Shown here piece by piece: positions 1-52,712 of a DNA stretch of 52,712 nt. Below the pieces are notes generated by a model. It did not search any database and was not told the DNA's origin. It saw nothing but the letters and a program-made list of their open reading frames with translations. Positions within the stretch are counted from its first letter, which is position 1; each line of letters begins with the position of its first letter. The DNA lies in the NCBI GenBank assembly GCA_018268515.1, contig JAFDWK010000065.1, positions 1-52,712 of the forward strand. Direction: 5' to 3'. The translations under genes and the position numbers were made by a program. This stretch comes from Actinomycetota bacterium. GTDB taxonomy: Bacteria; Actinomycetota; Actinomycetes; Actinomycetales; Microbacteriaceae.

Positions 1-62
1 CCCGACCGGATCCTCTTTCTGAGGTCACCGATTCGGCGTGTCCGAGTGCAAGGAGCATGATG

Positions 63-272
63 ATGTCCGTGGCTCCCGGCATCTACCAGCACTTCAAGGG
101 CGCCCGGTACGAGGTGCTCGCCGTCGCCAGGCACAGCGAGACCGAGGAGCAGCTGGTCTTCTACCGCAAGCTCTACGACGACTACAGCTATTGGGCGCGG
201 CCCCTCGCGATGTTCGAGGAGCACATCGAGCGGGACGGGTACAGCGGCCCGCGGTTCGCCCGCATCGCCTGA
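63..272 (+). CDS. DUF1653 domain protein
   Basis: A protein of about 69 residues that is essentially a single DUF1653 domain. It has the family pattern PGIYxHFKG near the N-terminus, then YEVLAVARHSET and the ending GPRFARIA. Three ATG codons lie in tandem at 57, 60 and 63. The Shine-Dalgarno AAGGAG at 50-55 is best spaced for the ATG at 63, so I chose that; the longest form starts at 57. The family is small, cytosolic and without a proven function. The gene converges on the ferritin-like gene, leaving about 12 bp between the stops. The family call is firm; no specific role can be read from the sequence. Confidence 0.85.
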   Translation: MSVAPGIYQHFKGARYEVLAVARHSETEEQLVFYRKLYDDYSYWARPLAMFEEHIERDGYSGPRFARIA

Positions 273-284
273 CCGGCGCTTCCG

Positions 285-1169
285 CTACCGACCCGTCCGG
301 AGCTCCGTCGGATCCAGGCTCGGGCCGAGCAGCGCGACGCTTCCTCGTAGCGCACCGGCCGGGCGGCGCGGCGGCTTGAGCGCGGATCCGGCGAAGCGGC
401 GGAAGGTGCCGAGCGCTCGCACGCCGTAGCCGACCGGGTTCCGACCGCAGGCGCGGAGGGCGGCGGCGTGGTCGACGCAGAGCACCGCGGTGGCGCCGAT
501 CGCGACGACCCACCAGGAGAGCCCGGCGAGCGCGCGCACGAGCAGGGGCGAATCGGCGAAGCCGACCCGCAGGCGGTCGACCTGGAACCGCAGGTGCTCC
601 CGCTCATCCGTGCGGATGCGCTCGCCGATCCCGCGCAGGATCGGATCCGGTGCGGCCTCCGCAAGGGCCTCGAAGTACTCCACGGCGACGGTCTCCGCGA
701 TCAGGAACAGCGCGATCTCGGTGCGCAGCCCCAGGATCCGGCGCAGCCGGGTGAAGGCGAAGTCCGACCAGTGCGCCCGCAGCGACGGCGCCGCCATGCG
801 CCGCAATCCCACCCCGAACAGTGCGGAGTGCCTCTGCTCCTCGGCCACGAGCAGCTCCAGAGCCCGGGTGTAGACCGGATCGCCGGCGGCCCTGGCCTTC
901 GCCAGCAGGCGCACGCCGTCGCCGCCCTCGCCGAGCTCGAAGCGCTGGAACGAGCGCACCAGCGCCTCCCGCTGCCGGACGGTCAGGGTGACCGGCGTCG
1001 ACGGATCCCACTCCCGCTCCAGCCGACGCTGCCGCGCCGGGTTCGCGGCGAAGTAGTCCACCCAGACGCGGAAGGGCGAGGCGTCCGGGATGAGATCCTC
1101 CGTGAGATCGGCAGCCGGTGCGGCGCCATCGGCCCGCACCGGCGCGCTCGGCATCGTCATCGTGTTCAT
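285..1169 (-). CDS. Ferritin-like diiron-type protein
   Basis: A 294-residue protein that looks like an all-helical ferritin-like diiron carboxylate protein. Candidate ligands in order are a Glu in RFELGEG, Glu and His in AEEQRHS, Glu residues in AETVAVEYFEA, and Glu and His in DEREHLRF. This gives two ExxH-type motifs, as expected of a two-iron site. A hydrophobic stretch (LSWWVVAIGATAVL) follows the last ligand pair. I start it at the ATG at 1169, which is preceded by GGAG with good spacing; an in-frame ATG at 1217 would lie inside the operator. It is divergent from the DUF2975/XRE pair, so that XRE protein is a likely regulator. It could be an oxygenase or a storage-type protein; the sequence does not decide. 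Confidence 0.7.
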   Translation of the reverse strand: MNTMTMPSAPVRADGAAPAADLTEDLIPDASPFRVWVDYFAANPARQRRLEREWDPSTPVTLTVRQREALVRSFQRFELGEGGDGVRLLAKARAAGDPVYTRALELLVAEEQRHSALFGVGLRRMAAPSLRAHWSDFAFTRLRRILGLRTEIALFLIAETVAVEYFEALAEAAPDPILRGIGERIRTDEREHLRFQVDRLRVGFADSPLLVRALAGLSWWVVAIGATAVLCVDHAAALRACGRNPVGYGVRALGTFRRFAGSALKPPRRPAGALRGSVALLGPSLDPTELRTGR

Positions 1170-1183
1170 CTCAGCTCCGTTTC

Positions 1184-1218
1184 GATGGATATCTATTGAG
1201 ATTCGATAGATATCCATC
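1184..1218. promoter_or_regulatory. 13-bp inverted-repeat operator between divergent genes
   Basis: A perfect inverted repeat with arms GATGGATATCTAT (1184-1196) and ATAGATATCCATC (1206-1218) and a 9-nt spacer. The same DNA also shows a direct repeat TTCGATRGATATC starting at 1181 and 1202, a 21-bp period that would put both copies on one helix face. It sits between the ferritin-like gene and DUF2975/XRE. The XRE protein encoded at 1714-1932 is the obvious candidate binder (inference). Confidence 0.75.
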
Positions 1219-1224
1219 CATAAT
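1196..1224 (+). promoter_or_regulatory. Sigma70-type promoter of the DUF2975-XRE pair
   Basis: TTGAGA at 1196-1201 and CATAAT at 1219-1224 are separated by exactly 17 nt. The predicted transcript start is about 1231-1232, coinciding with the GTG start codon at 1232, so the mRNA is probably leaderless. The -35 box lies in the spacer of the inverted repeat and the right arm fills the -35/-10 gap. A protein bound there should block RNA polymerase. Confidence 0.65.
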
Positions 1225-1231
1225 CGATGCT

Positions 1232-1714
1232 GTGAGTCAAGTGGTCATAGTTCTCGTCCGGGTCTTCATCGTCGTGCTCGTGCTCGGCACCCTCGCCGCC
1301 CAGATCCTCCTGATCCCCGCCCTGGCGGGCGAGCTCGGTGCGCTCTCGGCCCTCCCTGCGGCGTCGGTGCCCTACGCGATCGGCGGCATCGCTCTCGGGT
1401 TGTGCCTGGAGGTCTGCCTGCTCGCCACCTGGATGCTGCTGTCGATGGTCCGCCGTGACGCGATCTTCAGCGAGAGCGCCTTCCGCTGGGTGGATGCCAT
1501 CATCGGCGCCGCGGTGGCGGCCTTCGCGCTCGTCGCGCTGTTCGGCACGCACGCCGTGACCGTGCTGCAGCCGCGGCTCGAGGTGCCGGGCATCGCCCCG
1601 GTCGTCGCGGCGACCGCGGTGAGCGAGGCCATCTTCGTGCTGCTCGTCGTGGTGCTGCGCGGCCTGCTGCGCAGCGCGACGAACCTGCGCACCGAGCTCG
1701 CCGAGGTCATCTGA
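1232..1714 (+). CDS. DUF2975 family membrane protein
   Basis: A 160-residue integral membrane protein with four hydrophobic segments. The first is an N-terminal helix (VVIVLVRVFIVVLVLG), followed by two central ones and a last helix near AVSEAIFVLLVVVLRGLL. The size and four-helix layout, plus the XRE gene immediately downstream, match DUF2975 proteins (the YoaS/YozG-type pair of Bacillus). The GTG start at 1232 fits a leaderless transcript from the promoter at 1196-1224. The stop overlaps the next start by one base (TGATG), so the two are translationally coupled. The function is unproven; a role in sensing or modulating the partner regulator is an inference. Confidence 0.8.
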   Translation: MSQVVIVLVRVFIVVLVLGTLAAQILLIPALAGELGALSALPAASVPYAIGGIALGLCLEVCLLATWMLLSMVRRDAIFSESAFRWVDAIIGAAVAAFALVALFGTHAVTVLQPRLEVPGIAPVVAATAVSEAIFVLLVVVLRGLLRSATNLRTELAEVI

Positions 1715-1932
1715 TGGCCATCATCGTCGACATCGACGTGATGCTCGCCCGCCGGAAGATGTCGGTCGGCGACTTCGCCGACGCGATCGGGATCACCCCG
1801 GCGAACGTCGCGGTGCTCAAGAACGGCCGGGCGAAGGCCGTGCGCTTCACCACGCTCGACGCCATCTGCCGCACGCTCGACTGCCAGCCCGGAGACGTGC
1901 TGCGCTGGGTGCCGGACGAGGGCTCCGCGTAG
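1714..1932 (+). CDS. XRE-family (Cro/CI-like) small regulator
   Basis: A 72-residue single-domain DNA-binding protein. The helix-turn-helix lies around MSVGDFADAIGITPANVAVLKNG, and the ending (DAICRTLDCQPGDVLRW) is typical of YozG-like XRE proteins. No effector domain is present. It is coupled by a 1-nt overlap to the DUF2975 gene, the usual pairing for this family. It probably binds the inverted repeat at 1184-1218 and so controls its own operon and the divergent ferritin-like gene. The family call is strong; the target is inferred. Confidence 0.88.
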   Translation: MAIIVDIDVMLARRKMSVGDFADAIGITPANVAVLKNGRAKAVRFTTLDAICRTLDCQPGDVLRWVPDEGSA

Positions 1933-1983
1933 GCTGATCCCGGCCCGCACACCAGCGGACCGGAGGTGTGAGGAGGCGGCGGC

Positions 1984-3235: not shown

Positions 3236-4042
3236 GTGAGCGCAGACAGCGCGCCCGCCTTCCTCGCCCTGCACCACGGCGATGGCTTCGTGCTCCCCAA
3301 CGCCTGGGATCCGGGATCGGCGCGGATCCTCGCGCAACTCGGGTTCCCGGCGATCGCGACCACGAGCGCCGGAATCGCCTGGTCGCTCGGCATGCCCGAC
3401 GGCGGTGCGCTCGACCTCGACACGATGCTCGCGCACGTCGCCGCCATCGTGCGCGCGGTCGATGCGCCGGTGACCGCAGATCTGGAGGCCGGCTACGCAG
3501 ACACCCCCGACGGGGTCGGCCGCACGGTGATGCTCGCGGCTCAGGCCGGCGCGGTCGGGGCCAACCTCGAGGACGCCGCTGCCGGAGCGCTGTTCGACAT
3601 CGACGTCGCGGCCGATCGGGTCGCGGCGGCACGGGATGCGGCTCCGCGGGGGACGTTCGTGCTCAACGCCCGCACCGACGCGTACTTCCTTCCCGGCGCC
3701 GCGGATCCCTTCGCCGAGACGGTGGAGCGGGCGTTGCGCTACGTCGAGGCCGGCGCGGACTGCGTGTTCGTGCCGGGCGTGAACGACGAGCAGACGATCG
3801 GCCGCCTCGCCCGGGAGATCCCGGTGCCGCTCAATGTCGTCGCCGGCCTCGCGGCGCACGTCATCCCGGTGCCGCAGCTCTTCGCGCTCGGGGTGAAGCG
3901 GGTGAGCCTCGGCGGAAGCCTCGCCCGGGCCGCCCTCACGGCGCTGGAGCGCGCCGGCCGGGAACTGCTCGACACCGGCACGCTCGGCTTCCTCGACGGC
4001 GCGCTCGGCTATGCCGAGGTGCAGCGCCGGTTCGCGGGGTAG
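3236..4042 (+). CDS. Isocitrate lyase/PEP mutase superfamily protein
   Basis: A 268-residue TIM-barrel enzyme of the PEP mutase/isocitrate lyase superfamily. Visible family features are LPNAWDPGSARIL, the substrate-loop TTSAGIAWSLG, the metal-binding acidic run TADLEAGYADTP and NLEDAA. The Lys-Lys-Cys-Gly-His catalytic motif of isocitrate and methylisocitrate lyases is absent. It therefore belongs to the heterogeneous group holding oxaloacetate hydrolases, phosphonopyruvate hydrolases and uncharacterised enzymes. The GTG start follows a near-perfect GGAGGTGA ribosome site. A TTGACC box at 3177-3182 with TAAGCA at 3201-3206 is a weak promoter candidate. The substrate is unknown. Confidence 0.8.
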   Translation: MSADSAPAFLALHHGDGFVLPNAWDPGSARILAQLGFPAIATTSAGIAWSLGMPDGGALDLDTMLAHVAAIVRAVDAPVTADLEAGYADTPDGVGRTVMLAAQAGAVGANLEDAAAGALFDIDVAADRVAAARDAAPRGTFVLNARTDAYFLPGAADPFAETVERALRYVEAGADCVFVPGVNDEQTIGRLAREIPVPLNVVAGLAAHVIPVPQLFALGVKRVSLGGSLARAALTALERAGRELLDTGTLGFLDGALGYAEVQRRFAG

Positions 4043-4117
4043 GCAGTGTCGCTGGGCTCTCCGGCCCGCCAGACGGTGAGTTCCGGGAGAGGCGGCGCCG
4101 CGCCCGGAGAAGAAGAT

Positions 4118-4146
4118 ACCTCCATATGGAGGTTTTCTGCTAGCGT
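4118..4146 (+). promoter_or_regulatory. Perfect 16-bp palindromic operator overlapping promoter
   Basis: ACCTCCATATGGAGGT at 4118-4133 is a perfect 16-bp palindrome. A few bases later lies an extended -10, TGC followed by TAGCGT, at 4138-4146. The palindrome occupies the -35 region, so a bound dimer would occlude polymerase. The predicted start near 4153 would place a small hairpin (GGGCAG/CTGCCC, 4154-4169) at the 5' end of the mRNA. The palindrome is the size and type of a TetR-family site; the TetR encoded at 6245-6850 is the likely binder (inference). Confidence 0.65.
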
Positions 4147-4196
4147 GGCCTTAGGGCAGCAACCTGCCCCAGAAACCACAAGCAAGGAAGGTCGAC

Positions 4197-5021
4197 GTGG
4201 CCCTGCCAGAAACCTCGGTCCAGCTCTACACCCTCGCCGCGGAGTTCTCCGCCGATATGGAAGGCTCGCTCGACAAGCTCGCGGCGATCGGCCTCCGCAA
4301 CGTCGAGGCGTTCGACTTCGTCCGCCGTCCCGATGAGATCCGCGCCGCGCTCGACGCCTCGGGCCTCACCTCGCCGACCGGCCACGCGCCGCTGCTCTCC
4401 GACGAGCTGTGGACGCCCGACGGCTCGATTCCGACCCCGGCGCCGGAGGTCGTGTTCGAGGCCGCCGCGAAGGTCGGCCTGAAGACGGTCATCGACCCGT
4501 TCGTCGCGCCCGACCGCTGGTTCACGCTCGAGGGCGTGACCGACATCGCCGACCGCCTGAACGCGCTCGTCGACACCGCCGCCGGCTTCGGTCTCACGGT
4601 CGGCTACCACAACCACGCGCAGGAGTTCGTCGCCGACTTCGACGGTCAGAGCGCGTACGAGCGTTTCGTCGCGCTCACCGACGAGCGCGTGCAGCTCGAG
4701 CTCGACCTGTACTGGGCGCTCACCGGGGGACAGGACGTGCCGGCTCTCGTCTCACGTCTCGGCGATCGCCTCGTGGCCGCGCACGTCAAGGACGGCATCG
4801 CTCCCGCGAGCAACCCGTTCGCCCCCGGCGCCGGCGAGTTCGGCTCCGACAGCCTCGACCAGCGCCACGCCGGAACCGGTGACGTGCCGCTTGCGGACGC
4901 GCTGCGCGCGGCATCCGCCCTGCAGTACGCCGTCATCGAGTACGACAACGCACCCGGAGACGTCTTCGCCGACATCGCCGCGAGCTACGCCTTCCTCGTC
5001 GAGGGCGGCTTCGCCCGATGA
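4197..5021 (+). CDS. Sugar phosphate isomerase/epimerase (xylose isomerase-like TIM barrel)
   Basis: A 274-residue AP-endonuclease-2/xylose-isomerase-like barrel. Metal- and substrate-binding signatures include the His pair in GYHNHAQEF, Glu/Asp in LELDLYWA, His and Asp in HVKDG, and a C-terminal EYDNAPGD. Family members isomerise or epimerise keto sugars and often work with Gfo/Idh dehydrogenases, as here. The GTG start follows AAGGAAGG. It overlaps the next gene by 4 nt (ATGA), so the two form one operon behind the 4118-4133 palindrome. No GGATCC word occurs here, unlike most neighbours, suggesting a different history. The exact sugar is unknown. Confidence 0.82.
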   Translation: MALPETSVQLYTLAAEFSADMEGSLDKLAAIGLRNVEAFDFVRRPDEIRAALDASGLTSPTGHAPLLSDELWTPDGSIPTPAPEVVFEAAAKVGLKTVIDPFVAPDRWFTLEGVTDIADRLNALVDTAAGFGLTVGYHNHAQEFVADFDGQSAYERFVALTDERVQLELDLYWALTGGQDVPALVSRLGDRLVAAHVKDGIAPASNPFAPGAGEFGSDSLDQRHAGTGDVPLADALRAASALQYAVIEYDNAPGDVFADIAASYAFLVEGGFAR

Positions 5022-6142
5022 GCGCGGTCGGCATCGGAGTCATCGGCGTCGGCGTCATCAGCGACACCTATCTCGAGAACCTCTCCGCGTTCCCCGACGT
5101 CGATGTGCTCATCGTCGGCGATCTGCTCCTCGACCGCGCGCAGGCGCAGGCCGAAAAGTACGGCGTTGCTGCATTCGGCAGCGCCGACGACGTACTCGCC
5201 CACCCCGGCGTCGACCTCGTCATCAACCTGACGATCCCCGCCGTGCACATCGAGGTCTCCCGCAAGGCGATCGCCGCAGGTAAGCACGTGTGGACGGAGA
5301 AGCCGCTCGGCTTGGACCGCGCGGGCGCGGCCGAGTTGCTGCGCGAGGCGGAGGCCGCCGGTCTGCGCGTGGGCTCGGCGCCCGACACTCTTCTCGGCCC
5401 GGCGTTCCAGGCCGCGCGCCGGGCGATCGAGGGCGGCGTCATCGGCCGTCCGCTGTTCGCGCAGACCGTGTTCCAGACCCAGGGCCCCGACCTGTGGCAC
5501 CCGAGCCCAGCGTTCCTCTTCGCGAACGGCGCCGGCCCGCTGCTGGACATGGGGCCGTACTACTTCTCCGCTCTCGTGAGTCTGCTCGGACCCGTCGACC
5601 GCATCGCGGCCGTGGGCACCAAGGCCCGCGAGGAGCGGGAGATCCGCACGGGTCCGAACGCCGGAACGACCTTCCCTGTGGAAGTGCCGTCGACGATCCA
5701 GATCGTGACGGCCTTCGAGCAGGGCGCCTCCGCGCAGAGCCTGCTGAGCTTCGATTCGGCGCTCGAACGCCATGGCGTCGTCGAGATCCATGGCACCGAG
5801 GGCTCGATCGTGATCGCCGACCCGAACCAGTTCGCCGGTCGCATCGCGTACGTCAAGCCGCTGGGCGTCATCCGTGACGGCATGTCGTTCGAGCAGGAGT
5901 GGATCGAGATCGAGCACGACGACGTCGCCGTCGGCCGCGGTCTCGGCGCCCTCGACATGGCACGTGCGATTGCCGCGGGGCGTGCGCACGTCGCGTCCGG
6001 AGAGCTCGGGTTCCATGTGCTCGACATCCTGCTGTCCGCGCAGGAGTCGGCCGCGACCGGCCAGACCGTCGTCGTGGAGAGCACGGTCGGGGCCGTGCCG
6101 CTGCTCCCCGAGGGCTTCGACCCGTTCGCTGCGACCCTGTGA
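5018..6142 (+). CDS. Gfo/Idh/MocA-family NAD(P)-dependent oxidoreductase
   Basis: A 374-residue enzyme. The N-terminal Rossmann fold begins with IGVIGVGVISDTY and is followed by the family signature WTEKPLGLD around residue 90. A C-terminal alpha/beta substrate domain contains DMGPYYFSALVSLLGPV. Such enzymes oxidise or reduce sugars, inositols or their derivatives. It is translationally coupled (4-nt overlap) to the isomerase, which suggests a two-step sugar oxidation/isomerisation. A strong hairpin follows the stop. The donor or acceptor sugar cannot be read from the sequence. Confidence 0.85.
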   Translation: MSAVGIGVIGVGVISDTYLENLSAFPDVDVLIVGDLLLDRAQAQAEKYGVAAFGSADDVLAHPGVDLVINLTIPAVHIEVSRKAIAAGKHVWTEKPLGLDRAGAAELLREAEAAGLRVGSAPDTLLGPAFQAARRAIEGGVIGRPLFAQTVFQTQGPDLWHPSPAFLFANGAGPLLDMGPYYFSALVSLLGPVDRIAAVGTKAREEREIRTGPNAGTTFPVEVPSTIQIVTAFEQGASAQSLLSFDSALERHGVVEIHGTEGSIVIADPNQFAGRIAYVKPLGVIRDGMSFEQEWIEIEHDDVAVGRGLGALDMARAIAAGRAHVASGELGFHVLDILLSAQESAATGQTVVVESTVGAVPLLPEGFDPFAATL

Positions 6143-6155
6143 GGTCGTGCCGGAT

Positions 6156-6202
6156 GAAGACCACGGGTCCGTCAGCGCCAGGCTGACGGACCCGCCGTCT
6201 TC
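6156..6202. terminator. Strong hairpin between convergent genes
   Basis: The stem GGGTCCGTCAGC (6165-6176) pairs perfectly with GCTGACGGACCC (6182-6193) around a 5-nt loop, and GAAGAC/GTCTTC extend it further out. There is no long T tract. It lies between the oxidoreductase (+) and TetR (-) stop codons, so it probably serves both strands. Confidence 0.75.
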
Positions 6203-6244
6203 TGCACGGGCGGCGACGACCAGACGGCGCGAAGAGCGCGGTGG

Positions 6245-6850
6245 TCAGAGGCCGCGGAGCAGCCGATCGAGCATCTCCAGTGCGGCCCCGTGATCGACCT
6301 CGTCGTCGAGCAGCCACTGGATCTGCAGACCATCCGAGGCCGCGACGATCAGCGCAGCGACCTGGATCGGATCGAGATCCGTGCGGATGTGACCGGACTC
6401 CTGCATGCGGATGACCTGCTCCGCGATCTCCTCGCGGAGGCGGGTGAAGCGCTGTGTCGCGAACCGATGGGCGACCGGATGGTTGTCCTCGAGCGCCCTC
6501 GCTACGAGCGTCGAGTACAGCTGCACGAGACCCGGGATCTCGCGGTTCTTCTCGGCTGAGATGCTCATCGCCATCGCAGGGCTCGCGTCTGGCGGCATCG
6601 GCCGCTCGGCGCCCGGCCGGTGCTGCGACTCGGAATACACCGCCACGAGCAGTTCTTCGAGGGAGCCGAAGTAATGAGCCAGCGCGGCATGCGTGACCCC
6701 GACCTCCTGCGCGATCGCCCGCAGGCTGGTCTTCTGCGCGCCGCGGCGCGCGAACACCTCGATCGTCCTGTCCAGGATCTCTTGACGGCGCGCGATGCCC
6801 TTCGCATAGCGCCCCTTGGTGCGGGGCGCGTCGTCGGGGGCGTCGCTCAT
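6245..6850 (-). CDS. TetR/AcrR-family transcriptional regulator
   Basis: A 201-residue protein. The N-terminal TetR helix-turn-helix sits at about residues 20-65 (ILDRTIEVFARRGAQKTSLRAIAQEVGVTH...YFGSLEELL), followed by an all-helical ligand domain. The C-terminus (QIQWLLDDEVDHGAALEMLDRLLRGL) is common in sugar-pathway TetR proteins of actinobacteria. It converges on the isomerase/oxidoreductase operon, whose promoter carries a 16-bp palindrome, so it is the likely repressor of that operon. It too lacks GGATCC words, so it appears to have travelled with them. The ligand is unknown, possibly the pathway sugar. Confidence 0.88.
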   Translation of the reverse strand: MSDAPDDAPRTKGRYAKGIARRQEILDRTIEVFARRGAQKTSLRAIAQEVGVTHAALAHYFGSLEELLVAVYSESQHRPGAERPMPPDASPAMAMSISAEKNREIPGLVQLYSTLVARALEDNHPVAHRFATQRFTRLREEIAEQVIRMQESGHIRTDLDPIQVAALIVAASDGLQIQWLLDDEVDHGAALEMLDRLLRGL

Positions 6851-6920
6851 GTCTCCAGGGTATCGATGTGCCGCGCGATCAGCCTGTGGTCAGCGCGACC
6901 GGCACGCTCCTCGCCGCACG

Positions 6921-7568
6921 TCAGTGTGCCGCGGCCTCCGCCTCCAGGGCGCGGCGGAATGCGAAGTCGGCGTTCGCGAACACGACGTAGAGCAGCAGCC
7001 CCGGCACGAGCGTGCCGAGCACCGGCTGCAGGACGACCGCGGCCGCCGAGAGCGCGAGCAGCACGAGGGCGAACACGCTGAAGTACCAGCGCCGCACGGA
7101 CAGGTAGACCGCGGCCTTAGCGATCGCGCGCGCCGAGGCCTGCGGGTACAGCACCAGCCCCGCGACCGCGGTGGTGCAGGTCGCGAGCGCCCACGCCGCG
7201 ACCACGGCGAGCGTCGGCGCGACCAGCGGCGCCCAGACGGTGCCGGTCAGGATCGCGCCGTCGTAGAGCACGAAGCCGACCACCAGGCCGGTGCCGAGGC
7301 CGAGCAGCGCCGCTGCGGGCCCGCGGCGCCGGTACCCGCTCCAGAACGCGGCGAACGGCCGCGGCGGCTCGTCGCCGCGCAGGCGCCGGAACACCTCGAA
7401 GGCCCCCGCCAGCGACGGGGCGAGCGTGAGCGAGAGGAGCAGCACGGTCGGCCAGGCCTGCAGCGCGTCGTGCGCGACGAACAACAGCACGGCGAGCGGC
7501 AGGTTGGCCAGCACGAGCAGCAGATCCGTCATCAGGATCGTGTACGCGTACCCGAACAGCGACTCCAT
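6921..7568 (-). CDS. YesL family protein (DUF624)
   Basis: A 215-residue polytopic membrane protein with about five hydrophobic segments: residues 10-30, 38-58, a pair around 85-135, and a C-terminal pair around 165-200. The pattern matches DUF624/YesL proteins, which are regularly encoded beside ABC importers and enzymes for pectin or other uronic-acid oligosaccharides. It is the distal gene of the ABC transporter operon, starting 72 bp after the second permease. Its molecular function is not established; the context suggests an accessory role in oligosaccharide uptake. Confidence 0.75.
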   Translation of the reverse strand: MESLFGYAYTILMTDLLLVLANLPLAVLLFVAHDALQAWPTVLLLSLTLAPSLAGAFEVFRRLRGDEPPRPFAAFWSGYRRRGPAAALLGLGTGLVVGFVLYDGAILTGTVWAPLVAPTLAVVAAWALATCTTAVAGLVLYPQASARAIAKAAVYLSVRRWYFSVFALVLLALSAAAVVLQPVLGTLVPGLLLYVVFANADFAFRRALEAEAAAH

Positions 7569-7640
7569 GCCCTCCTTGGCGGAACCGCAGGATCCGCCGG
7601 CGCGAGGGCCGGACCCCCGCGCGATCGCCGGCCGTGACGC

Positions 7641-11961: not shown

Positions 11962-14004
11962 ATGACGCCGAACCCCGAAGCGGACGCCCTCTCCCGGGTC
12001 AGCGCGCACGCGGCACCGCCGGACGGCGTGACCGTGAATCCCGCGGAATTCCACGGGCCGCTGTTCGCGCACTGGGGGCCCGCGATGCGTGCAGAAGCGC
12101 TGCGGTCGACACTCGGCGGCGTGGCCGCGGCGGACCTGCGCGACCGGGTGGGGATCCTGCCGATCGACCGTCGCGACCGGTGGGCGCAGGCGGATCCGAT
12201 CACGATCGAACGGATCATGGCGGCGGCCGGGAACGACCGCGGGCGGCCCTGGCCCGATGCGCTCGGCTCGCTCTTCGCCCGGTACGTGCGCGACGGCGAC
12301 CGCGCGACGTACGAGCGTGCGGTGTCGGACCGCCAGGAGCGGCTGACGCGCGCCGTGATCGCGGCGGCGGTCACCGACGACCCCGCATGGATCGACGAGG
12401 CGGGCGACGGCGTCGTGGTGCTGTGCGAGCAGAGCACCTGGTCGCTGCCCGCGCACGACGACGCGCACGCCCGGCGCGGATTCGTGCTGCCCGATGTCGA
12501 CGCGCCGTATCTCGACCTCATCGCCGGGGAGATCGTGGCGCAGCTGGCCGTCGCGGACCGGATCCTCGGTGCGCGCTGGGACGCGCGCTGGCCCGGGCTG
12601 CGCGAACGCATCCGGCGCGAGGCCGAGGCCCGGGTGTTCACCCCGTTCGAGACCCGCGACGACCTGTGGTGGCTCGGGTACTGGCGCGACGTCAACAACT
12701 GGAACCCGTGGATCCTGGGCAACACGCTGCTCGCGGCGGTGCTGCTGCTCGACGACGCCGCCCGGGTGGCGCGGATGCTCGCCCGGGCGCTGGACAGCCT
12801 CGACCGCTACGTCGCGGAGCTGCCCGCCGACGGCGCGATCGACGAGGGCGTCGCCTACTGGTGGAACGGCGCCGGGCGGATGCTGGAGATGCTCGACACC
12901 GTGGCCGCGATCACCGGAGGCCGGCTGGACGCCGCCGGGATCCCGGTGGTGGCGGAGACCCTGCGCTTCCCGATGCGGATGCACCTCGGCGGCGACTGGT
13001 ACGTGAACGTCGCGGACGGCTGGGCGCGCTCGCGCGGGCACGAGCCGTGGCAGCTGCCATTCCGGTGGGGCGGGCTCACCGCCGATGCGCAGGTGGCGGA
13101 CTGGGCCCGGGCCGCCCGCCGTCCGGGCGCCCCCGCGGCGGATGTCGCCGGCGGGCTGCCGCGGCTGGTGCGCGCCCTCGCCGATCCCGCCTGGCGTGAC
13201 GCGGCGCCGGCCGCGCCGCCCCTGCCCGCCGCCGTCTGGCTGCCGTCCGTGCAGGTGCTGGTGCGCCGCGGCGAGGCCGGTTCCGCGACCGGGCTCGCGC
13301 TCGCCGCGAAGGGCGGCACGAACGACGAGAACCACAACCACAAGGACCTCGGATCCTTCCTCGTCGCCGCGGGTGGCCGGCAGCTGCTCGTCGACGTCGG
13401 AAAACCCACCTACACGGCGCAGACGTTCAGCGCCGGGCGGTACCGGATCCGGGCGATGCAGAGCGGCTGGCACAGCGCGCCGGCGCCCTTCGGTCTCGAG
13501 CAGGGGGAGGGGCCGGCCTTCGCCGCGCGGGTGATCACCGCGCCGCAGGGCGAGCCGGGGCCGGCACCGTCGACGGACAGCGGAACCGCCGAGTTCGAGC
13601 TGGAGCTCGCCGGCGCCTATCCGCTCGCGGAGGGCGACTCCTGGCGGCGGCGGTTCCGCTTCGCCGGATCCGGATCGGGATCCGCATCGGGATCCGGATC
13701 CGGGGCGGATCGGATCGAGGTGACGGACCGCTGGCGGCTGAGGGAGGACGGCGCGCACCGCGTGCACCTCATCGCCGCAGGGGACGTCGTGCCCGCGGGC
13801 TCCGGCCTCGAGGTCGGCGCCGACGGGCACCGGATCCGCATCACCGCCGACGACGGCACCGGCCCGGTCGCGCCCGCGCTCGAGGTGTGGGAGCTCGACG
13901 ATCCGGAGCTGATCGCCGTGTGGGGGCCGCGCCTCACCCGGCTCGTCTACGCCGTCTCCGGCCGCAGCGGCACGCTCGCGACGGTGATCGAGGAGCTGTC
14001 ATGA
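11962..14004 (+). CDS. Heparinase II/III family protein (putative polysaccharide/oligosaccharide lyase)
   Basis: A 680-residue protein. The first ~400 residues look like an alpha/alpha toroid (DDLWWLGYWRDVNNWNPWILGN, GVAYWWNGAGRMLEMLD). A beta-rich heparinase II/III-type region follows, with the hallmark NDENHNHKDLGSF at about residues 451-466, where His residues bind metal or act in catalysis. No signal peptide is seen, so it probably acts in the cytosol on imported uronate-containing oligosaccharides. A GSGSGSASGSGSG linker near residues 569-581 is encoded by a 12-bp tandem repeat. It overlaps the regulator gene by 4 nt. The exact polysaccharide is unknown. Confidence 0.8.
   Translation: MTPNPEADALSRVSAHAAPPDGVTVNPAEFHGPLFAHWGPAMRAEALRSTLGGVAAADLRDRVGILPIDRRDRWAQADPITIERIMAAAGNDRGRPWPDALGSLFARYVRDGDRATYERAVSDRQERLTRAVIAAAVTDDPAWIDEAGDGVVVLCEQSTWSLPAHDDAHARRGFVLPDVDAPYLDLIAGEIVAQLAVADRILGARWDARWPGLRERIRREAEARVFTPFETRDDLWWLGYWRDVNNWNPWILGNTLLAAVLLLDDAARVARMLARALDSLDRYVAELPADGAIDEGVAYWWNGAGRMLEMLDTVAAITGGRLDAAGIPVVAETLRFPMRMHLGGDWYVNVADGWARSRGHEPWQLPFRWGGLTADAQVADWARAARRPGAPAADVAGGLPRLVRALADPAWRDAAPAAPPLPAAVWLPSVQVLVRRGEAGSATGLALAAKGGTNDENHNHKDLGSFLVAAGGRQLLVDVGKPTYTAQTFSAGRYRIRAMQSGWHSAPAPFGLEQGEGPAFAARVITAPQGEPGPAPSTDSGTAEFELELAGAYPLAEGDSWRRRFRFAGSGSGSASGSGSGADRIEVTDRWRLREDGAHRVHLIAAGDVVPAGSGLEVGADGHRIRITADDGTGPVAPALEVWELDDPELIAVWGPRLTRLVYAVSGRSGTLATVIEELS
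13666..13701 (+). repeat. 12-bp tandem repeat encoding a Gly-Ser linker
   Basis: Three tandem 12-bp units, each beginning GGATCC, start at 13666, 13678 and 13690, with an extra GGATCC at 13696. They encode GSGS-GSAS-GSGS inside the heparinase-like protein. The unit is built from the GGATCC word enriched throughout this window and may vary in copy number by slippage. Confidence 0.8.
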
Positions 14005-17369: not shown

Positions 17370-18242
17370 TCAGGCCGCCGTGGTGAGCCGGATCGCGTTC
17401 GCCCAGGGATCCTCGAAGGCGAGCGTGCGTCCGTCGTCGCGCACTGCGACGCCGAAGTGCGTCATGCGCTCGGCGACGGATCCGAGATCGTCCGCGCCCG
17501 GCAGCACGATGTCGACCCGGCCGAGGCCGAGGGCCGGGGCGCGGCGGCCGGCGCCCGCGCTGTTCCAGGTGTTCATCGCCATGTGGTGGTGGTAGCCGCC
17601 CGCGCTCACGAACAGCGCGGAGCCGCCGAGCTCCGTGGTGGTCTCGAAGCCGAGCCGGTGCACGTAGAACTCGCGGGCCGAGGCGACATCGCCGACCGAG
17701 AGGTGCACGTGACCGACCGTCGCGCCGCCGATCACCGGATCCGCGGTGCCCGACTCGGTGAGATGCTCGCCGAGGAACGCGTTCGGATCCAGGTACAGGG
17801 TGTCCATCTCGATCCGCCCATGCGTCCAGCTCCACTGGGTGCGGTCGCGGTCCCAGTACAGCTCGACGCCGTTTCCCTCGGGGTCGGTGAAGTAGAACGC
17901 CTGGCTGACCAGGTGGTCCGCGCTGCCGGTGAACGTGCCGGGGGCGTGCCGGGCGACCGAGTACAGCGCCGCCGCGAGCGCCGCCTGCGTCTCGAACAGG
18001 ATCGCGGTGTGGAACAGGCCCGCCGCCCGCGGGGCCGCATGCCTGAGCTCGGGGCTGTGCTGCAGGATCACCACGGGGGCGGTGCCGCGGCCGAGTACCA
18101 CCCGGTCGCCCTCGGCCGAGAGCACCCGCAGGGTCACCGCGTCGCGGTAGTAGGCGGTCATCGCGTCGAGGTCGGCGACGAGCAGGGTCACCGGACCCAT
18201 CGCGGTGTCGGCGGCGAGGAGGTCGGAGGAGGGGACGGTCAC
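17370..18242 (-). CDS. VOC family protein, catechol 2,3-dioxygenase (CatE)-like
   Basis: A 290-residue protein made of two glyoxalase/VOC modules (about residues 15-135 and 165-285). Metal-ligand candidates are His78 in GLFHTAIL, Glu127 in PEGNGVELYWDR and His in VGHVHLSVG, followed by a conserved GGYHHHMAMNTW. The tandem-module design and size match CatE-type extradiol dioxygenases of Gram-positives. A substrate other than catechol is quite possible. It is monocistronic, convergent with the DUF2264 gene and about 60 bp from the hydrolase terminus. Confidence 0.8.
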   Translation of the reverse strand: MTVPSSDLLAADTAMGPVTLLVADLDAMTAYYRDAVTLRVLSAEGDRVVLGRGTAPVVILQHSPELRHAAPRAAGLFHTAILFETQAALAAALYSVARHAPGTFTGSADHLVSQAFYFTDPEGNGVELYWDRDRTQWSWTHGRIEMDTLYLDPNAFLGEHLTESGTADPVIGGATVGHVHLSVGDVASAREFYVHRLGFETTTELGGSALFVSAGGYHHHMAMNTWNSAGAGRRAPALGLGRVDIVLPGADDLGSVAERMTHFGVAVRDDGRTLAFEDPWANAIRLTTAA

Positions 18243-18300
18243 GGTATATGCAACGGAATGGATCCCGGATCCATTCCGCCGGGCCCGCCTGAGGCCGTGC

Positions 18301-41780: not shown

Positions 41781-43369
41781 GGCGCCCCCGCAGCCTGCGC
41801 CTGCAGGTGGTGCTCATCGCCTCGGCGCTGGTCGCGGCGGTGAGCATCGTCGTCGGCGTGGTCGCCGTGATCTCCCTGCACGACTACATGCTCGGGCAGG
41901 TCGATGCGCGCCTGAACGGCGCCGCCGCGCGCGGAGCGGACATCGCCGGCGGGAGCGGGCCGCAGGGCCCCGGCTCCACGCCGAGCACCACGCCGGGGAG
42001 CGGAACGTCTCCGAACGGCCCGGGATCCGTTCCCCGGCCGACGACGCCGACGCGGCCGAACCGCGACGACGTGGTCGGCGCCCCCGGACAGTCGGCCGGT
42101 ACGATCACCGCCGTGTTCCGCGACGGCGCGTTCCAGATCGGCGGGTGGATCGCCTCCGACGGCGTGCGGCACGACCTCACCGACGCGCAGAAGAAGCTCC
42201 TCGCCGCCCGCCTGCCCGCCGGAACCGCGGATCGCACCGCGCCGGTCACCCTGGACCTCGGCGGATCGCTCGGTGCCTACCGGGTCGCCGCGCGCACCAC
42301 GCCCAGCGGCGCCGGCGTGGTCACCGCCCTGCCGCTGGACTCGGTGACGGCGGTGACCGGGCGGCTGACGCTCGTGGTGGCGCTGGTCGGCGCGGCCTGC
42401 ATCGTGCTGGCGATCGCGGCCGCGGCGGTGGCGATGGGGCGGGCGCTGCGCCCGCTGCGCCGCGTCGCGCACACGGCGGCGGCGGTGACCGCGGTGCCGC
42501 TGGACCGGGGTGAGGTGCGGCTGGCCGCGCGCGTCGAGGCCCGCGACATCGCCTCGACCTCCGAGGTCGGGCAGGTCGGCGCCGCGCTGAACGACATGCT
42601 CGACCACGTCGAGGACGCGCTCGCCCAGCGCGAGGCCAGCGAGTCGACGATGCGCCGGTTCGTCGCCGATGCGAGCCACGAGCTGCGCACGCCGCTCGCC
42701 ACGATCCGCGCCTACGCCCAGCTCTCCGGGCGCCCCGACGCCGAGGAGCAGGAGGTGCGCGGCAACGCCGCCCTCATCGACGTCGAGGGGGTGCGCATGG
42801 GCGCTCTCATCGACCAGCTGCTCGTGCTGGCCCGGCTGGACGCGCTGCCCGAGCTGGCGCGCGACGAGACCGACGTGCGGCTGCTCGTCGCCGAGGCTGT
42901 GCTCGCCGCCCGCCTCGCCGGGCCCGACCACACCTGGGTCATGGAGCTGGGGGAGGACCCGGCCCTTGTGCGCGGGGATGCCGGCGACCTGCGCCGGGTC
43001 GTCGACAACCTTCTCGGCAACGCCCGAGTACACACCCCGGCTGGCACGACGGTGCGGGTGCGGCTGGACGAGGTGCGGACCGGTCATGACATCGGATCCG
43101 TCCGCCTCACGGTCTCCGACGACGGACCGGGCCTTGCCGAGGGCGTGCGCGAGACCGTGTTCGAGCGCTTCGCCCGGGGCGAGACCTCGCGGTCGCGCGA
43201 GGGCGGCGGCACCGGGCTCGGCATGGCGATCGCCCGTGCCGTCGTCGAGGCGCACGGCGGCACGATCGCGGTCGGGCAGGGTCCGGGTGCGGCGTTCGTG
43301 GTGACGCTGCCGATCGCCGAGCCCGGCACGGATCCGGATCCTCCCGCGCGGATTACGCTGGACGGGTGA
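41777..43369 (+). CDS. Sensor histidine kinase
   Basis: A 530-residue membrane kinase. TM1 is at residues ~9-34. An extracytoplasmic sensor of about 160 residues follows, with a Gly/Pro/Ser/Thr-rich stretch at 58-95. TM2 is at ~195-220, then HAMP. HisKA has His301 in VADASHELRTPLATIRAYAQLSG. The ATPase has DNLLGNARVHTPAG (N box), DDGPGL (G1) and GGGTGLGMAIARAVVEAHGG (G2). It pairs with the upstream response regulator. The location suggests it senses envelope or cell-wall state, but the signal is unknown. Its stop overlaps the serine dehydratase start by 4 nt (GTGA). Confidence 0.94.
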   Translation: MRRPRSLRLQVVLIASALVAAVSIVVGVVAVISLHDYMLGQVDARLNGAAARGADIAGGSGPQGPGSTPSTTPGSGTSPNGPGSVPRPTTPTRPNRDDVVGAPGQSAGTITAVFRDGAFQIGGWIASDGVRHDLTDAQKKLLAARLPAGTADRTAPVTLDLGGSLGAYRVAARTTPSGAGVVTALPLDSVTAVTGRLTLVVALVGAACIVLAIAAAAVAMGRALRPLRRVAHTAAAVTAVPLDRGEVRLAARVEARDIASTSEVGQVGAALNDMLDHVEDALAQREASESTMRRFVADASHELRTPLATIRAYAQLSGRPDAEEQEVRGNAALIDVEGVRMGALIDQLLVLARLDALPELARDETDVRLLVAEAVLAARLAGPDHTWVMELGEDPALVRGDAGDLRRVVDNLLGNARVHTPAGTTVRVRLDEVRTGHDIGSVRLTVSDDGPGLAEGVRETVFERFARGETSRSREGGGTGLGMAIARAVVEAHGGTIAVGQGPGAAFVVTLPIAEPGTDPDPPARITLDG

Positions 43370-45536: not shown

Positions 45537-45548
45537 CGCTCGGGTTCC

Positions 45549-45593
45549 TTGACGCATCCGGATCCCGGATCCATAATTCATCACATGATGAAT
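45549..45593 (+). promoter_or_regulatory. Sigma70 promoter and TetR-type operator of the ABC exporter
   Basis: TTGACG (45549-45554), a 17-nt spacer and CATAAT (45572-45577) form a near-consensus promoter. The predicted start is at the ATG (45585), so the mRNA is probably leaderless. ATTCATCA (45576-45583) and TGATGAAT (45586-45593) form a perfect palindrome with a CA spacer, overlapping the -10 and start. It is ideal for repression by the neighbouring TetR. Confidence 0.75.
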
Positions 45594-49674: not shown

Positions 49675-49691
49675 CCCTCCAGTCTGCCGCG

Positions 49692-50999
49692 CTATGCGGC
49701 GGCCTCGGACAGGCCCAGACGGGGGTAGAGCAGGCTGAAGCCCTTGGCGAGACCGTCGGTCAGCGCCGGGAGCACATGGCCGCCGTTCGGGACCTCGTAG
49801 TACACGGCCGACATCCCGGCCGCGGACGCCGCTGCGGCGATCCGCTGCACACCGGGGATGTATCCGAGGTCGTTGGAACCCACGGTGAATACGCCGAAGG
49901 TGCCCGGGATCTTCCGGGCGGCGAGGAGGTTCTCGGGCTTGATCGCGTCGTATGCCGCCTGATCGCCGTGGAAGATGTCGGCGAGGACGGTCGAGGGCTG
50001 CTCGGATCCGGGATACTCCTCGCCGGAGATGTCGAGCACGTTGGACCAGAGGTTCGGATACTCCGCCAGGTACGACATGGCGCAGGCGCCGCCGTTGGAG
50101 TAGCCGGCGATCGTGCGATACCGGGGATCCTTGATGACGTTGAGATTGGCCACCGCCCAGTTCACGACGTCCTGGACGATGAACGTCTTGGCCTTGCCGA
50201 ATTTTGCCGTGTCCAGGCAGAGCGGATCCTGATTCGGGTCGCCGATCTGATCCGCCACGACGACGATCGGCGCCAGGCCGTCATGCCGGGCGGCGAACTG
50301 GTCGAGCACACCCGCGACGTAGCTGGGATCGGGCGAACCGGGCTGCCCCATCATCAGGACCACCAGCGGCAGACGCGGGGCGTTCGGCACCAGCGCGGCC
50401 GGGGGCAGGTAGATCCCGGCCGGCCGCGAGGCGAAGCCGGAGATCGCGTTCGGGATGATCTGCGTGCCGACGGTGCCGTGCGTCGGCATGTCGGCCGGTG
50501 GTTTCCAGGTCTTCCACAGCGGCGGCGCCTGGGGCCCGCCGTGCGGCTTCGCGGTGGGAGGCGGAAGCGTGATCGGGTTGCGGGCGACGATGCCGAGAAG
50601 GGAGCCCAGGGTGCGGTCGAGGCCGATCGCGGCGTTGATGCCGAGCGAGCCGACCGCGATGAAGACCAGCACGGCGCACGCGGCGATGACCTTGCGCCAC
50701 CAGCGCGATCGCCACATGTTCGCGATCGCGAGGCAGACGCCAGCGAGCGTGCCGGCGAACCAGAAGTACACGACGTGCTTGATGGGGATGCCGAAGGCGT
50801 GGTTGATCCGGATCACGATGAACCAGATCAGGACCGCGAGCAGGAGGCCGGTCAGCAGCGCGCCGACACTGGTCACCAGCCAGCGCAACGTCGGCCGGCG
50901 GATCAGCAGGTAGAGGAACAGGGCACCGGCGACGACGGAGAGGATCGCGACCGCGGGGCCGCCCACGATGTCGACGCGCAGCAGATCGTCAATCATCAT
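49692..50999 (-). CDS. Membrane-anchored putative esterase (alpha/beta-hydrolase, esterase D/mycolyltransferase-like)
   Basis: A 435-residue protein with an N-terminal block of four membrane helices (residues ~12-125) and then an extracytoplasmic alpha/beta-hydrolase domain. The nucleophile elbow is IAGYSNGGACAMSYL, the catalytic His lies in VPNGGHVLPALT and an acid is probably in VGSNDLGY. LPLVVLMMGQPGS is the first core strand. It is similar in design to actinobacterial membrane-tethered esterases and mycolyltransferase-fold proteins. Starts at 50999 or 50996 are equivalent. Cell-envelope ester chemistry is plausible; the substrate is unknown. Confidence 0.8.
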   Translation of the reverse strand: MMIDDLLRVDIVGGPAVAILSVVAGALFLYLLIRRPTLRWLVTSVGALLTGLLLAVLIWFIVIRINHAFGIPIKHVVYFWFAGTLAGVCLAIANMWRSRWWRKVIAACAVLVFIAVGSLGINAAIGLDRTLGSLLGIVARNPITLPPPTAKPHGGPQAPPLWKTWKPPADMPTHGTVGTQIIPNAISGFASRPAGIYLPPAALVPNAPRLPLVVLMMGQPGSPDPSYVAGVLDQFAARHDGLAPIVVVADQIGDPNQDPLCLDTAKFGKAKTFIVQDVVNWAVANLNVIKDPRYRTIAGYSNGGACAMSYLAEYPNLWSNVLDISGEEYPGSEQPSTVLADIFHGDQAAYDAIKPENLLAARKIPGTFGVFTVGSNDLGYIPGVQRIAAAASAAGMSAVYYEVPNGGHVLPALTDGLAKGFSLLYPRLGLSEAAA

Positions 51000-51106
51000 C
51001 TCGACGTGCGGATCCGTGGGGCATCGAGGCGACGACGGGACCGGACTCGTGCACCATGTGTCCAGTCTGCCGCGATGACGGCCGCCGCGGGGTCACGGAT
51101 CGATAT

Positions 51107-51147
51107 GAGAACGGCGCCCGCTCCCTCGGGATGCGGGTGCCGCTCTC
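51107..51147 (-). terminator. Hairpin downstream of the flotillin gene
   Basis: GAGAACGGCGCCCGC (51107-51121) and GCGGGTGCCGCTCTC (51133-51147) pair at 13 of 15 positions around an 11-nt loop. It lies just past the flotillin stop (51157) on the minus strand and before the esterase gene. Confidence 0.6.
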
Positions 51148-51156
51148 GGGACGGTG

Positions 51157-52712
51157 TCAGTCCTGCTCCGCGGCCTCCCTCGCGGCGGCGCGGGTGGCCG
51201 GCGCGGTCGTGTGCACGCCCGGGGCGCCGCCTGCGTGCGAGAGGGGGTGGTGCGGCTCGGACTGGGCGAGCCCCGCGCCGAGACCGCGGCCGACGGCCTG
51301 GCCCTGGATGATGCCGGCGAGGTCGAGTCCGGTCGCGGCGTGCACGCTGTCGAACACGCTGCGCAGCGCCTTGGCGTTGTCGCCGCCCACGACGCTGGAG
51401 GCGCCGTCGTCGCCGGATCCGCCGATGATCGACACGCTGCCGATCGTGGCGTAGCCCTTGGCGAACTCGGCCATGATCGACGGCAGCACCTCGAGCACGC
51501 GCTGCGACAGGAATGCCTCCTGGTTGGAGGCGATGGCCTTCGCCTCGGCCTCGACCGCGGCGGCCTTGGCCTCTCCCTCGGCGCGGATCGCGTCGGCCTC
51601 CGCCGTGGCGCGCAGGCGTCGGGCGGTGGCTTCGGCATCGGCCTGGGCGCGCAGGGCGTCGGCGTCACCGGTGGCCTTGGCGACCGCGGCGGCCGCCTCG
51701 CCGTCGGCGCGGGCCTTGTCGGACTGCGCCTGCTGCTCGGCGATGCGCGTGGACGCCTCGGCCTGCTTGACCTGCTCGATCGCGGCGGCCTCGGCCGCCC
51801 GCTCGCGCGTGTACAGGTCGGCCTGGGCGCGGGTCTCGGCCTCGTAGCGCTGGGCGTCGGCGACGCGCTTGACGTCGGCGTCGAGCTGGGCCTGCTTGTT
51901 CTCGGCCTGCTGCTGCAGCACCGCCTGCTCGGCCTGCGCGCGGGCGAGCTGCTCGGCCTGCTCGGCTTCGGCGCGGGCCCGGCCGACGCCGGCGGCGGCG
52001 TTGGCGGTGTTGGTGTCGAGCGCGGTCTGCTCGACCAGGTTCGCCTCCTGGTTGGCGATGTACTTCTGGTTGATCGCGCGGTCGGCGTTGGTCTGCGCGA
52101 TCTCGGCCGCCTGGCGCTTGGCCTGGATCTCCGGCGCGCCGAGCGACTGGATGTAGCCGACCTTGTCGGTGATGCCCTTGATCTGGAACGAGTCCAGGAT
52201 GAGGCCCTGCTCGGCGAGCTCCTGCGAGACGTCGGCGGCGATCTGGTCGGAGAACTTCTTGCGCTCCCGCATCAGCTCGACGACGGAGAGCGTGGCGACG
52301 ATGCCGCGCAGGGCGCCCTCGAGCTGCTCGGTGGTGAACTGCTCGATGGCCTTGTCCTGTGAGGCGAAGCGCTCCGCGGCACGGCGGACGAAGAGCGGGT
52401 CGGATCCGATCTTCACGATCGCGACGCCGTCGACGTTCAGGGTCACGCTGTCCAGCGACTGCGCCTCGGCGTTCAGAAGCACCTGGCGCGAGCGCAGCGA
52501 GATGATCTCGTGGCGCTGCGTGATCGGGTTGACGAGCGACTTGCCGTTGACGATCACGGTGACCGGGGACTCGGTCATCTCGGAACTCGTGGATCCGTCG
52601 GGCAGCAGGGTCGCGCGCTGCACCTTCTGCTTGCGGCCCGAGATCACCAGCGCCTCGTCGGCGCGGGCGACCTTGATCCAGCTGCGCGCGAACAGCAGCA
52701 CGATGAGAAGGA
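51157..52712 (-). CDS. Flotillin-like SPFH/band-7 protein (5' end beyond the window)
   Basis: At least 514 residues. Reading to the window edge continues a membrane helix (LLIVLLFARSWIKV), so the true start lies outside. An SPFH domain follows (DEALVISGRKQKVQRAT, EQFTTEQLEGALRGIVATLSVVELMRERKKFSDQI). A long Ala/Glu/Gln coiled coil comes next (roughly residues 215-385 of the visible part), and then the flotillin C-terminal region (LSQRVLEVLPSIMAEFAKGYATIGSVSIIGG). It organises membrane microdomains. The tail after GLAQSEPHHPL is disordered and variable. Confidence 0.9.
   Translation of the reverse strand, partial: LLIVLLFARSWIKVARADEALVISGRKQKVQRATLLPDGSTSSEMTESPVTVIVNGKSLVNPITQRHEIISLRSRQVLLNAEAQSLDSVTLNVDGVAIVKIGSDPLFVRRAAERFASQDKAIEQFTTEQLEGALRGIVATLSVVELMRERKKFSDQIAADVSQELAEQGLILDSFQIKGITDKVGYIQSLGAPEIQAKRQAAEIAQTNADRAINQKYIANQEANLVEQTALDTNTANAAAGVGRARAEAEQAEQLARAQAEQAVLQQQAENKQAQLDADVKRVADAQRYEAETRAQADLYTRERAAEAAAIEQVKQAEASTRIAEQQAQSDKARADGEAAAAVAKATGDADALRAQADAEATARRLRATAEADAIRAEGEAKAAAVEAEAKAIASNQEAFLSQRVLEVLPSIMAEFAKGYATIGSVSIIGGSGDDGASSVVGGDNAKALRSVFDSVHAATGLDLAGIIQGQAVGRGLGAGLAQSEPHHPLSHAGGAPGVHTTAPATRAAAREAAEQD

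What the first reader, a model, noticed from the sequence alone, without database searches (positions are those of the whole stretch)
1..52712. Extreme over-use of the palindrome GGATCC in all three reading frames
By eye I count about 22 copies between 13.3 and 17.4 kb (about one per 190 bp) and about 12 in the first 3.7 kb. The composition-matched palindrome GGTACC occurs 3 times in the same 13.3-17.4 kb. In coding DNA the word appears as Gly-Ser (GGA TCC), as xGG ATC Cxx and as xGG GAT CCx, and it is also intergenic. The enrichment is therefore not one favoured dipeptide. Rare codons GGA and GAT seem to be chosen mainly where they complete the word. This looks like DNA-level selection, comparable to HIP1 in cyanobacteria: a protein-binding, structural or repair/uptake word. 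No cognate methylase is seen here.
Basis: partly seen in the sequence, partly recalled or inferred. Interest (0 to 1): 0.78.

Follow-up and report, generated by a model that had tools for sequence, protein, structure and literature searches.

The report
Dialect-switching genome word in Microbacteriaceae
This bacterium's genome is peppered with thousands of copies of one short DNA word, kept there at the DNA level; relatives use different versions of the same word, which points to an unidentified DNA-reading machine.

Summary
Confirmed. GGATCC occurs 148 times in the window and 8,244 times in the 3.71 Mb genome. In window genes it occurs 132 times against 28.6 in synonymous-codon shuffles, in all three frames. 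In Microbacterium it is bimodal: 19 of 295 genomes have at least 1.5 per kb, one has 1.0, 275 have 0.66 or less (by eye). The 19 form two clades; genus g35 is also high.

The fuller word is CGGATCCG. Most other Microbacterium carry CGGATGCCG, enriched in many genera of the family but not at such density in 292 genomes of other families. A third form, CGGAACC(A), marks G302 and G265. G126 has two forms.

Completing codons are nearly forced: Gly before TCC is GGA in 73% of cases, 8.5% elsewhere. Four of eight M. foliorum phages carry the CGGATGCC form. GGATCC over-use in B3 mycobacteriophages is in print, unexplained.

It works like HIP1 or uptake-sequence dialects; membership is unproven.

The parts
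1..52712. 148 copies of GGATCC (61 of them inside CGGATCCG) over the whole window; every start is listed
   Evidence: codon shuffle 132 vs 28.6 in genes
13666..13701 (.). four copies within 36 bp (starts 13666, 13678, 13690, 13696) inside one called gene
18260..18272 (.). two copies at 7-bp offset outside called genes, just upstream of the gene at 17370-18242 (-)
45560..45572 (.). two copies at 7-bp offset outside called genes, just upstream of the gene starting at 45585 (+)
43330..43341 (.). two copies at 6-bp offset (GGATCCGGATCC) near the end of a called gene

Best explanation
CGGATCCG (core GGATCC) is the local dialect of a genome-wide recognition word of Microbacteriaceae. Shown: it is enriched at the DNA level in all frames; it is kept preferentially between species that use it; at least three dialects share CGGA...CC (CGGATGCCG, CGGATCCG, CGGAACC(A)); dialects follow clades in the sample treed; and some phages carry the form usual in Microbacterium. 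Inferred: a sequence-specific DNA-binding machine that handles DNA inside the cell (recombination, repair, or sparing DNA from degradation, as Chi does) reads the word. DNA carrying it is favoured, so near-miss sites are pushed to the full word until most attainable sites are filled.
For: Codon shuffles and density outside genes. Near-saturation at attainable sites: Gly before TCC is GGA 73% vs 8.5% elsewhere in this genome and 93% vs 6% in G365; Asp in G|GAY|CC is GAT 82.5% vs 16.7%; in the pool of low-GGATCC Microbacterium Asp in G|GAY|GCC is GAT 66% vs 18%. Retention between species: clade A GGA in the word 0.67 vs 0.225 outside, clade B 0.62 vs 0.36; in CGGATGCCG-type species GAT in GGATGCC 0.64 vs 0.36 and GGA in GGATCC 0.22 vs 0.23. 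Aligned low relatives differ from the word by several kinds of base change. Dialects and clades. Family-wide spread. Phages: Hyperion, Marcie, Owens, Clownery carry the CGGATGCC form, 0 of 200 shuffles as high; a Pipefishvirus mycobacteriophage has GGATCC 38 vs 10.0 in all three frames.
Against: No reader protein was identified. No strand polarity, unlike E. coli Chi. Four of eight M. foliorum phages, Cece, Min1 and a Curtobacterium phage show no clear enrichment, and the dialect of M. foliorum itself is inferred. In CGGATGCCG-type species some letters inside GGATCC are also kept better (GAT 0.56 vs 0.375, CGG 0.63 vs 0.37), and GAT is raised in the GGATCC context of low relatives (44% vs 19%), so part of the effect is shared context. 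Some Microbacterium (G209, G348) show no strong word. Gaps are near exponential with an excess of close pairs, not even.
Confidence: 0.4

Rival explanations
1. Uptake-sequence dialects: Microbacteriaceae take up free DNA and prefer DNA carrying their dialect, so biased transformation and recombination spreads the word, as DUS does in Neisseriaceae.
For: Dialects follow clades, share a core, differ by one inserted base in one case, two coexist in G126, and there is no strand polarity. The Neisseriaceae paper reports like features: a dialect that is another with one T inserted, two dialects in one species, a shared core, some genomes with none (passages read). The channel gene ComEC is present in 54 of 54 genomes tested.
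Against: ComEC is equally present in genomes without the word. Four Microbacterium phages carry the word, which transformation does not explain. No receptor was looked for and no competence is shown here.
Confidence: 0.27
2. HIP1-like drive: a DNA methyltransferase marks the word, and methyl-directed repair or a similar process keeps fixing near-misses in favour of the word.
For: A CcrM/RsrI-like adenine methyltransferase is present in 135 of 150 family genomes. Excess of CGGATGCCG is higher where it is present (median ratio 5.4, n=134, vs 2.6, n=15; p=0.003, not corrected for kinship). Cyanobacterial HIPs track methyltransferases (read).
Against: Many genomes have the enzyme and no CGGATGCCG excess. 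By PF01555, G268 has no match of the shared enzyme's strength yet 986/986 copies of CGGATGCCG, and G396 and G342, both fragmented assemblies, lack such a match yet are GGATCC-rich. Residues that varied with dialect inside the genus did not hold up in 60 further family sequences, though a few other columns differ weakly. PF00145 and PF02086 are absent from many high genomes. Two dialects are not palindromes.
Confidence: 0.23
3. Ordinary codon or mutation-context bias of a high-G+C genome.
For: Several other 6-mers exceed codon shuffles by 1.5-2 fold here and in relatives, and GAT is raised in the GGATCC context of low relatives too.
Against: All three frames are affected, sister species of like composition lack the excess, and the aligned differences include transitions and transversions.
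Confidence: 0.03
4. Site of a restriction-modification system (GGATCC is the BamHI site).
For: Only the identity of the site.
Against: Such sites are expected to be avoided (as PMC4841201 also says, passage), and here the word is enriched. Of 20 Microbacterium genomes taken as high (G349 included), 12 have one PF01555 match only and G342 none; 13 of 20 lack PF00145. Other methylase families were not searched.
Confidence: 0.03

Closest known systems
DNA uptake sequence (DUS) dialects of Neisseriaceae (PMC3630211, passages read)
   Same: Family-bound short word, thousands of copies, clade-following dialects with a shared core, one dialect differing by an inserted base, two dialects in one genome, some members with none.
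   Different: Different phylum and sequence; one dialect is a palindrome; some phages carry the word; no receptor or competence shown.
HIP1 and alternate HIPs of cyanobacteria (PMC4390886; abstract, sections 12 and 19, and part 1 of 2 of section 18 read)
   Same: Highly iterated word around GATC, replaced by another word in some lineages.
   Different: Two of the three dialects are not palindromes; no methyltransferase of the families searched tracks the dialect.
GGATCC over-use in subcluster B3 mycobacteriophages (PMC4841201, passages read)
   Same: The same 6-mer, genome-wide, over four times expectation, unexplained by its authors; reproduced here in 25 kb of Phlyer, 38 vs 10.0 in codon shuffles (that Phlyer is B3 is recalled).
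   Different: A phage of Mycobacterium; flanks not mainly C...G (7 of 41); no dialects described in the passages read.
Chi sites (PMC8022716, passages read)
   Same: Short over-represented word with lineage variants; a plausible role on DNA inside the cell.
   Different: No strand polarity in the stretches tested.

Membership tests
HIP-type word | Over-represented at the DNA level, not by codon usage | tested here: met
HIP-type word | Palindromic | tested here: not met
   CGGATCCG is; CGGATGCCG and CGGAACC(A) are not
HIP-type word | Cognate methyltransferase present where the word is frequent | tested here: inconclusive
HIP-type word | Word is methylated | not testable with these tools
   needs long-read data
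DNA uptake sequence | Abundant word with clade-following dialects sharing a core | tested here: met
   compared
DNA uptake sequence | Uptake of DNA depends on the word | not testable with these tools
   needs transformation assays
DNA uptake sequence | Sequence-specific pilin receptor | not tested
   only ComEC was searched
Chi site | Polarised to the leading strand | tested here: not met
   G106 117:132 over six stretches (one of them 9:29), G302 83:75 over five; replichores were not mapped
Chi site | Recognised by a RecBCD, AddAB or AdnAB type enzyme | not testable with these tools
Restriction-modification target | Cognate accessory methylase in genomes with the word | tested here: not met
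   none of PF01555 (beyond the shared enzyme), PF00145 or PF02086 is common to the high genomes tested; other families not searched

The most novel reading that the evidence does not exclude
Microbacteriaceae carry a self-marking DNA word, read inside the cell by a family-specific protein, whose dialect changes between clades and which some phages copy in order to pass as self. The unexplained GGATCC over-use of B3 mycobacteriophages could then record a natural host that uses the CGGATCCG dialect or one like it.
Probability: 0.25. Interest if true: 0.92.

Novelty: new variant of a known kind. Interest (0 to 1): 0.82.

Why it matters
Genome-wide words with a switchable dialect are known from few lineages. 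This one runs through a family with hundreds of sequenced species, appears to have changed at least four times (clade A, clade B, genus g35, G265) if CGGATGCCG is the older form, and is carried by some phages of a standard laboratory host. That makes the open question of what creates and keeps HIP-like words testable. It also warns that GGATCC counts in these genomes cannot be read as codon bias, and it may explain a published oddity of mycobacteriophages.

Tried and rejected
Single-lesion mutation route (Vsr-like): rejected, because the states aligned with the word in low relatives differ from it by several substitution classes. PF00145, PF02086 and accessory PF01555 methylases as cause: absent from many high genomes. 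Covariation of residue 87 of the shared methylase with dialect: seen inside the genus, not upheld in 60 family sequences. ComEC as discriminator: 54 of 54. Even spacing: not found. Foreign-looking genes lacking the word: no clear trend by codon typicality, 2.16, 2.49, 2.62 and 1.88 per kb by quartile.

Literature. One search listed 20 papers; one of them (PMC4841201) reports GGATCC over-use in B3 mycobacteriophages, which I missed at first and opened. One search found 79 papers holding CGGATGCCG; I saw 15 titles and opened one (PMC12089995), where it lies inside a detection probe; the other 64 were not seen. (15, 12 and 10 papers listed) showed nothing on this word in Microbacteriaceae by title and start of abstract. 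PMC11984167 states that PacBio methylation motifs of Microbacterium sp. Clip185 were sent to REBASE (passage); I could not see them. PMC2843746 was checked by term search only, no hit. The searches served the comparisons.

Not tested: GGATCC or CGGATCCG outside the family (one search counted CGGATGCCG only), and only four genomes of other families in the same order were in that sample.
Full report
OBSERVATION. GGATCC occurs 148 times in the 52,712-base window. In window genes (my own caller) the word occurs 132 times against 28.6 (sd 4.8, maximum 45 of 500) when synonymous codons are shuffled, and in every frame: 58 vs 4.6, 39 vs 16.4, 35 vs 7.6. In 309 kb of the same genome: 564 vs 128.8 in genes, and 2.94 per kb outside called genes against 0.32 in a pool of relatives. 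A second high genome, G440, agrees (2.08 outside); a third, G365, has only 0.71 outside against 2.09 inside genes. The whole genome has 8,244 copies in 3.71 Mb. In the 309 kb sample it has the highest maximal-order Markov z of all 6-mers.

DISTRIBUTION. Of 295 genomes of the genus, 19 have 1.5 to 2.4 copies per kb, G349 has 1.0, and 275 have 0.66 or less, by my reading of the table and its rounded genome sizes. A tree of concatenated cell-division genes of 41 genomes puts the 19 in two separate, well-supported clades of 10 and 9. Genus g35 is also high (5,698 and 6,148 copies).

THE WORD IS LONGER AND HAS DIALECTS. In high genomes the fuller word is CGGATCCG: in coding DNA 211 vs 26.0 in this genome and 68 vs 3.2 in G365. 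The low Microbacterium are not bare: their top 8-mers are CGGCATCC and CGGATGCC, 3.8-fold over codon shuffles, that is CGGATGCCG read on either strand. Whole-genome counts show hundreds to over a thousand copies per orientation in most of the 295 genomes, against 14-93 for the reversed control, while the 19 high-GGATCC genomes have 30-193 (by eye). Across the family it exceeds its reversed control fivefold or more in 72 of 149 genomes, the window's own left out. In 292 genomes of other families it never exceeds about 76 per Mb by my reading, against 660 in G106; a few there still stand well over their control (G605 105 vs 10, G709 129 vs 17, G627 128 vs 22), and only four come from other families of the same order. 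So the dense word looks like a property of Microbacteriaceae, and CGGATGCCG is probably the older form (inference). Some Microbacterium have little of either. Of those sampled, G302 (CGGAACCA 65 vs 4.2) and G265 (CGGAACC 59 vs 8.5) use a third form; G126, of another genus, has both CGGATGCC (84 vs 11.7) and CGGATCCG (31 vs 5.8); the sister group of clade A has a mild CGGATCC excess (86 vs 26.5); G209, G348 and, outside the genus, G051 show no strong word in 100-120 kb. G153, sister of clade B, shows none in 40 kb but genome-wide has 714 CGGATGCCG against 73 reversed. A scan of centres between CGG and CCG gives a like picture by clade.

MAINTENANCE. Where the other letters are in place, the completing codon is nearly forced. 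Glycine before TCC is GGA in 73% of 310 cases against 8.5% elsewhere (odds about 26-fold over GGC), and in G365 in 93% of 91 against 6% (about 200-fold). Asp in G|GAY|CC is GAT in 82.5% of 177 against 16.7%. In the pool of low-GGATCC Microbacterium, mostly of the CGGATGCCG type, Asp in G|GAY|GCC is GAT in 66% of 240 against 18%; but GAT is also raised in their G|GAY|CC context, 44% of 112. Between species, GGA inside GGATCC is retained in 67% vs 22.5% outside (clade A) and 62% vs 36% (clade B), but 22% vs 23% in CGGATGCCG-type species; there GGATCC does give GAT (56% vs 37.5%) and CGG (63% vs 37%) some benefit, and GGATGCC gives GAT 64% vs 36%. In clade B the old form seems to be fading: GAT inside it 15% (n=13) vs 44%, GGC 33% (n=73) vs 74%, while TCC is unchanged (66% vs 66%). 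These pair counts are not independent. Aligned low relatives of clade B carry GCATCC, GGCTCG, GGATCG, GGCTCC, CGATCC and GGACCC where clade B has the word, so no single lesion makes it; direction of change is inferred. One synonymous change, GGCATCC to GGGATCC, turns the old form into the new (follows from the sequences).

WHAT READS IT. Not found. Of three methylase families searched, one enzyme is common to nearly all genomes, an adenine methyltransferase related to RsrI and CcrM; the neighbouring genes in two genomes suggested no partner by eye. It is present in 135 of 150 family genomes. CGGATGCCG excess is higher where it is present, but many genomes have the enzyme and no excess, and G268 has the word without a PF01555 match of that strength. 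Residue covariation with dialect inside the genus failed in 60 further sequences, where other columns differed weakly between word-rich and word-poor genomes, uncorrected for kinship. Other methylases are patchy. ComEC is in 54 of 54 genomes, with or without the word.

POLARITY AND SPACING. In G106 GGATGCC lies 117:132 on the two strands over six stretches, one of them 9:29, and in G302 CGGAACC lies 83:75 over five; replichores were not mapped. E. [quoted passage not shown] Gaps between copies are near exponential with an excess under 25 bp, and counts per window are over-dispersed.

PHAGES. Eight stretches from phages isolated on M. foliorum were tested by codon shuffle. Hyperion, Marcie, Owens and Clownery, two pairs with unlike terminases, carry the CGGATGCC form at about three times expectation (0 of 200 shuffles as high); Brahms, Sharkboy, Quenya and Zooman have 4-8 copies against 2.4-4.3 (9, 48, 78 and 10 of 200 as high). 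Cece (M. radiodurans), Min1 (M. nematophilum) and phages of Curtobacterium, Arthrobacter and Gordonia are not enriched. That M. foliorum itself uses CGGATGCCG is inferred from the genus. A 2015 paper reports GGATCC over four times expectation, genome-wide and unexplained, in B3 mycobacteriophages (PMC4841201, passages); in 25 kb of Phlyer I find 38 vs 10.0 in shuffles (maximum 19), in all three frames, with flanks not mainly C...G (7 of 41). Phage copies weigh against a purely transformation-driven word and for a role on DNA inside the cell; they also show that GGATCC over-use is not confined to Microbacteriaceae and their phages.

KNOWN COUNTERPARTS. It behaves like the DUS dialects of Neisseriaceae: thousands of copies, clade-following dialects, a shared core, one dialect differing by a single inserted base, two dialects in one genome, some genomes with none (passages). 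It behaves like HIP1 in being a DNA-level word around GATC that can be replaced by another. It is filed under neither: methylation, uptake and the receptor could not be tested, and two dialects are not palindromes.

VERDICT. A real and strong dialect word of Microbacteriaceae; I found no report of it in the searches, whose lists I saw only in part. That it is maintained at the DNA level is shown; that an intracellular DNA-handling machine reads it is my best inference (0.4), with uptake (0.27) and methylation-coupled drive (0.23) close behind.

Noticed in passing
window 3709-7589: A 3.9 kb stretch without GGATCC, covering genes at 4197-7568; the one at 6245-6850 has the lowest GC3 of the window genes listed (0.87). 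Possibly a recent arrival.
   Followed up: no
L263-L268 and L350-L354 (phage stretches): GGATCC is below codon-shuffle expectation in these phages, an Arthrobacter phage included: general avoidance of the site, in contrast to Phlyer (L355).
   Followed up: partly
G051 and G121 (genus g52): CGGATGCCG is rarer than its reversed control (6/8 and 5/5 vs 27/30 and 28/27), and the shared methyltransferase is absent in both.
   Followed up: partly
G001, G085, G148 (g2) and G050, G120 (g51): The shared methyltransferase match holds one in-frame stop in all sampled members of two genera; decay, or a match running past the true end, was not sorted out.
   Followed up: no
G000 stretches outside the window: A short tandem array of units like CCCCCACCGGATCCGGGATC in this genome.
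   Followed up: no
named cell-division loci L186-L255: CGG-AAGAA-CCG is about 15-fold over expectation in these loci; perhaps one conserved site in an orthologous gene.
   Followed up: no
G605 and G709: Two genomes of another family stand 8-10 fold over the reversed control for CGGATGCCG, at low absolute counts.
   Followed up: no
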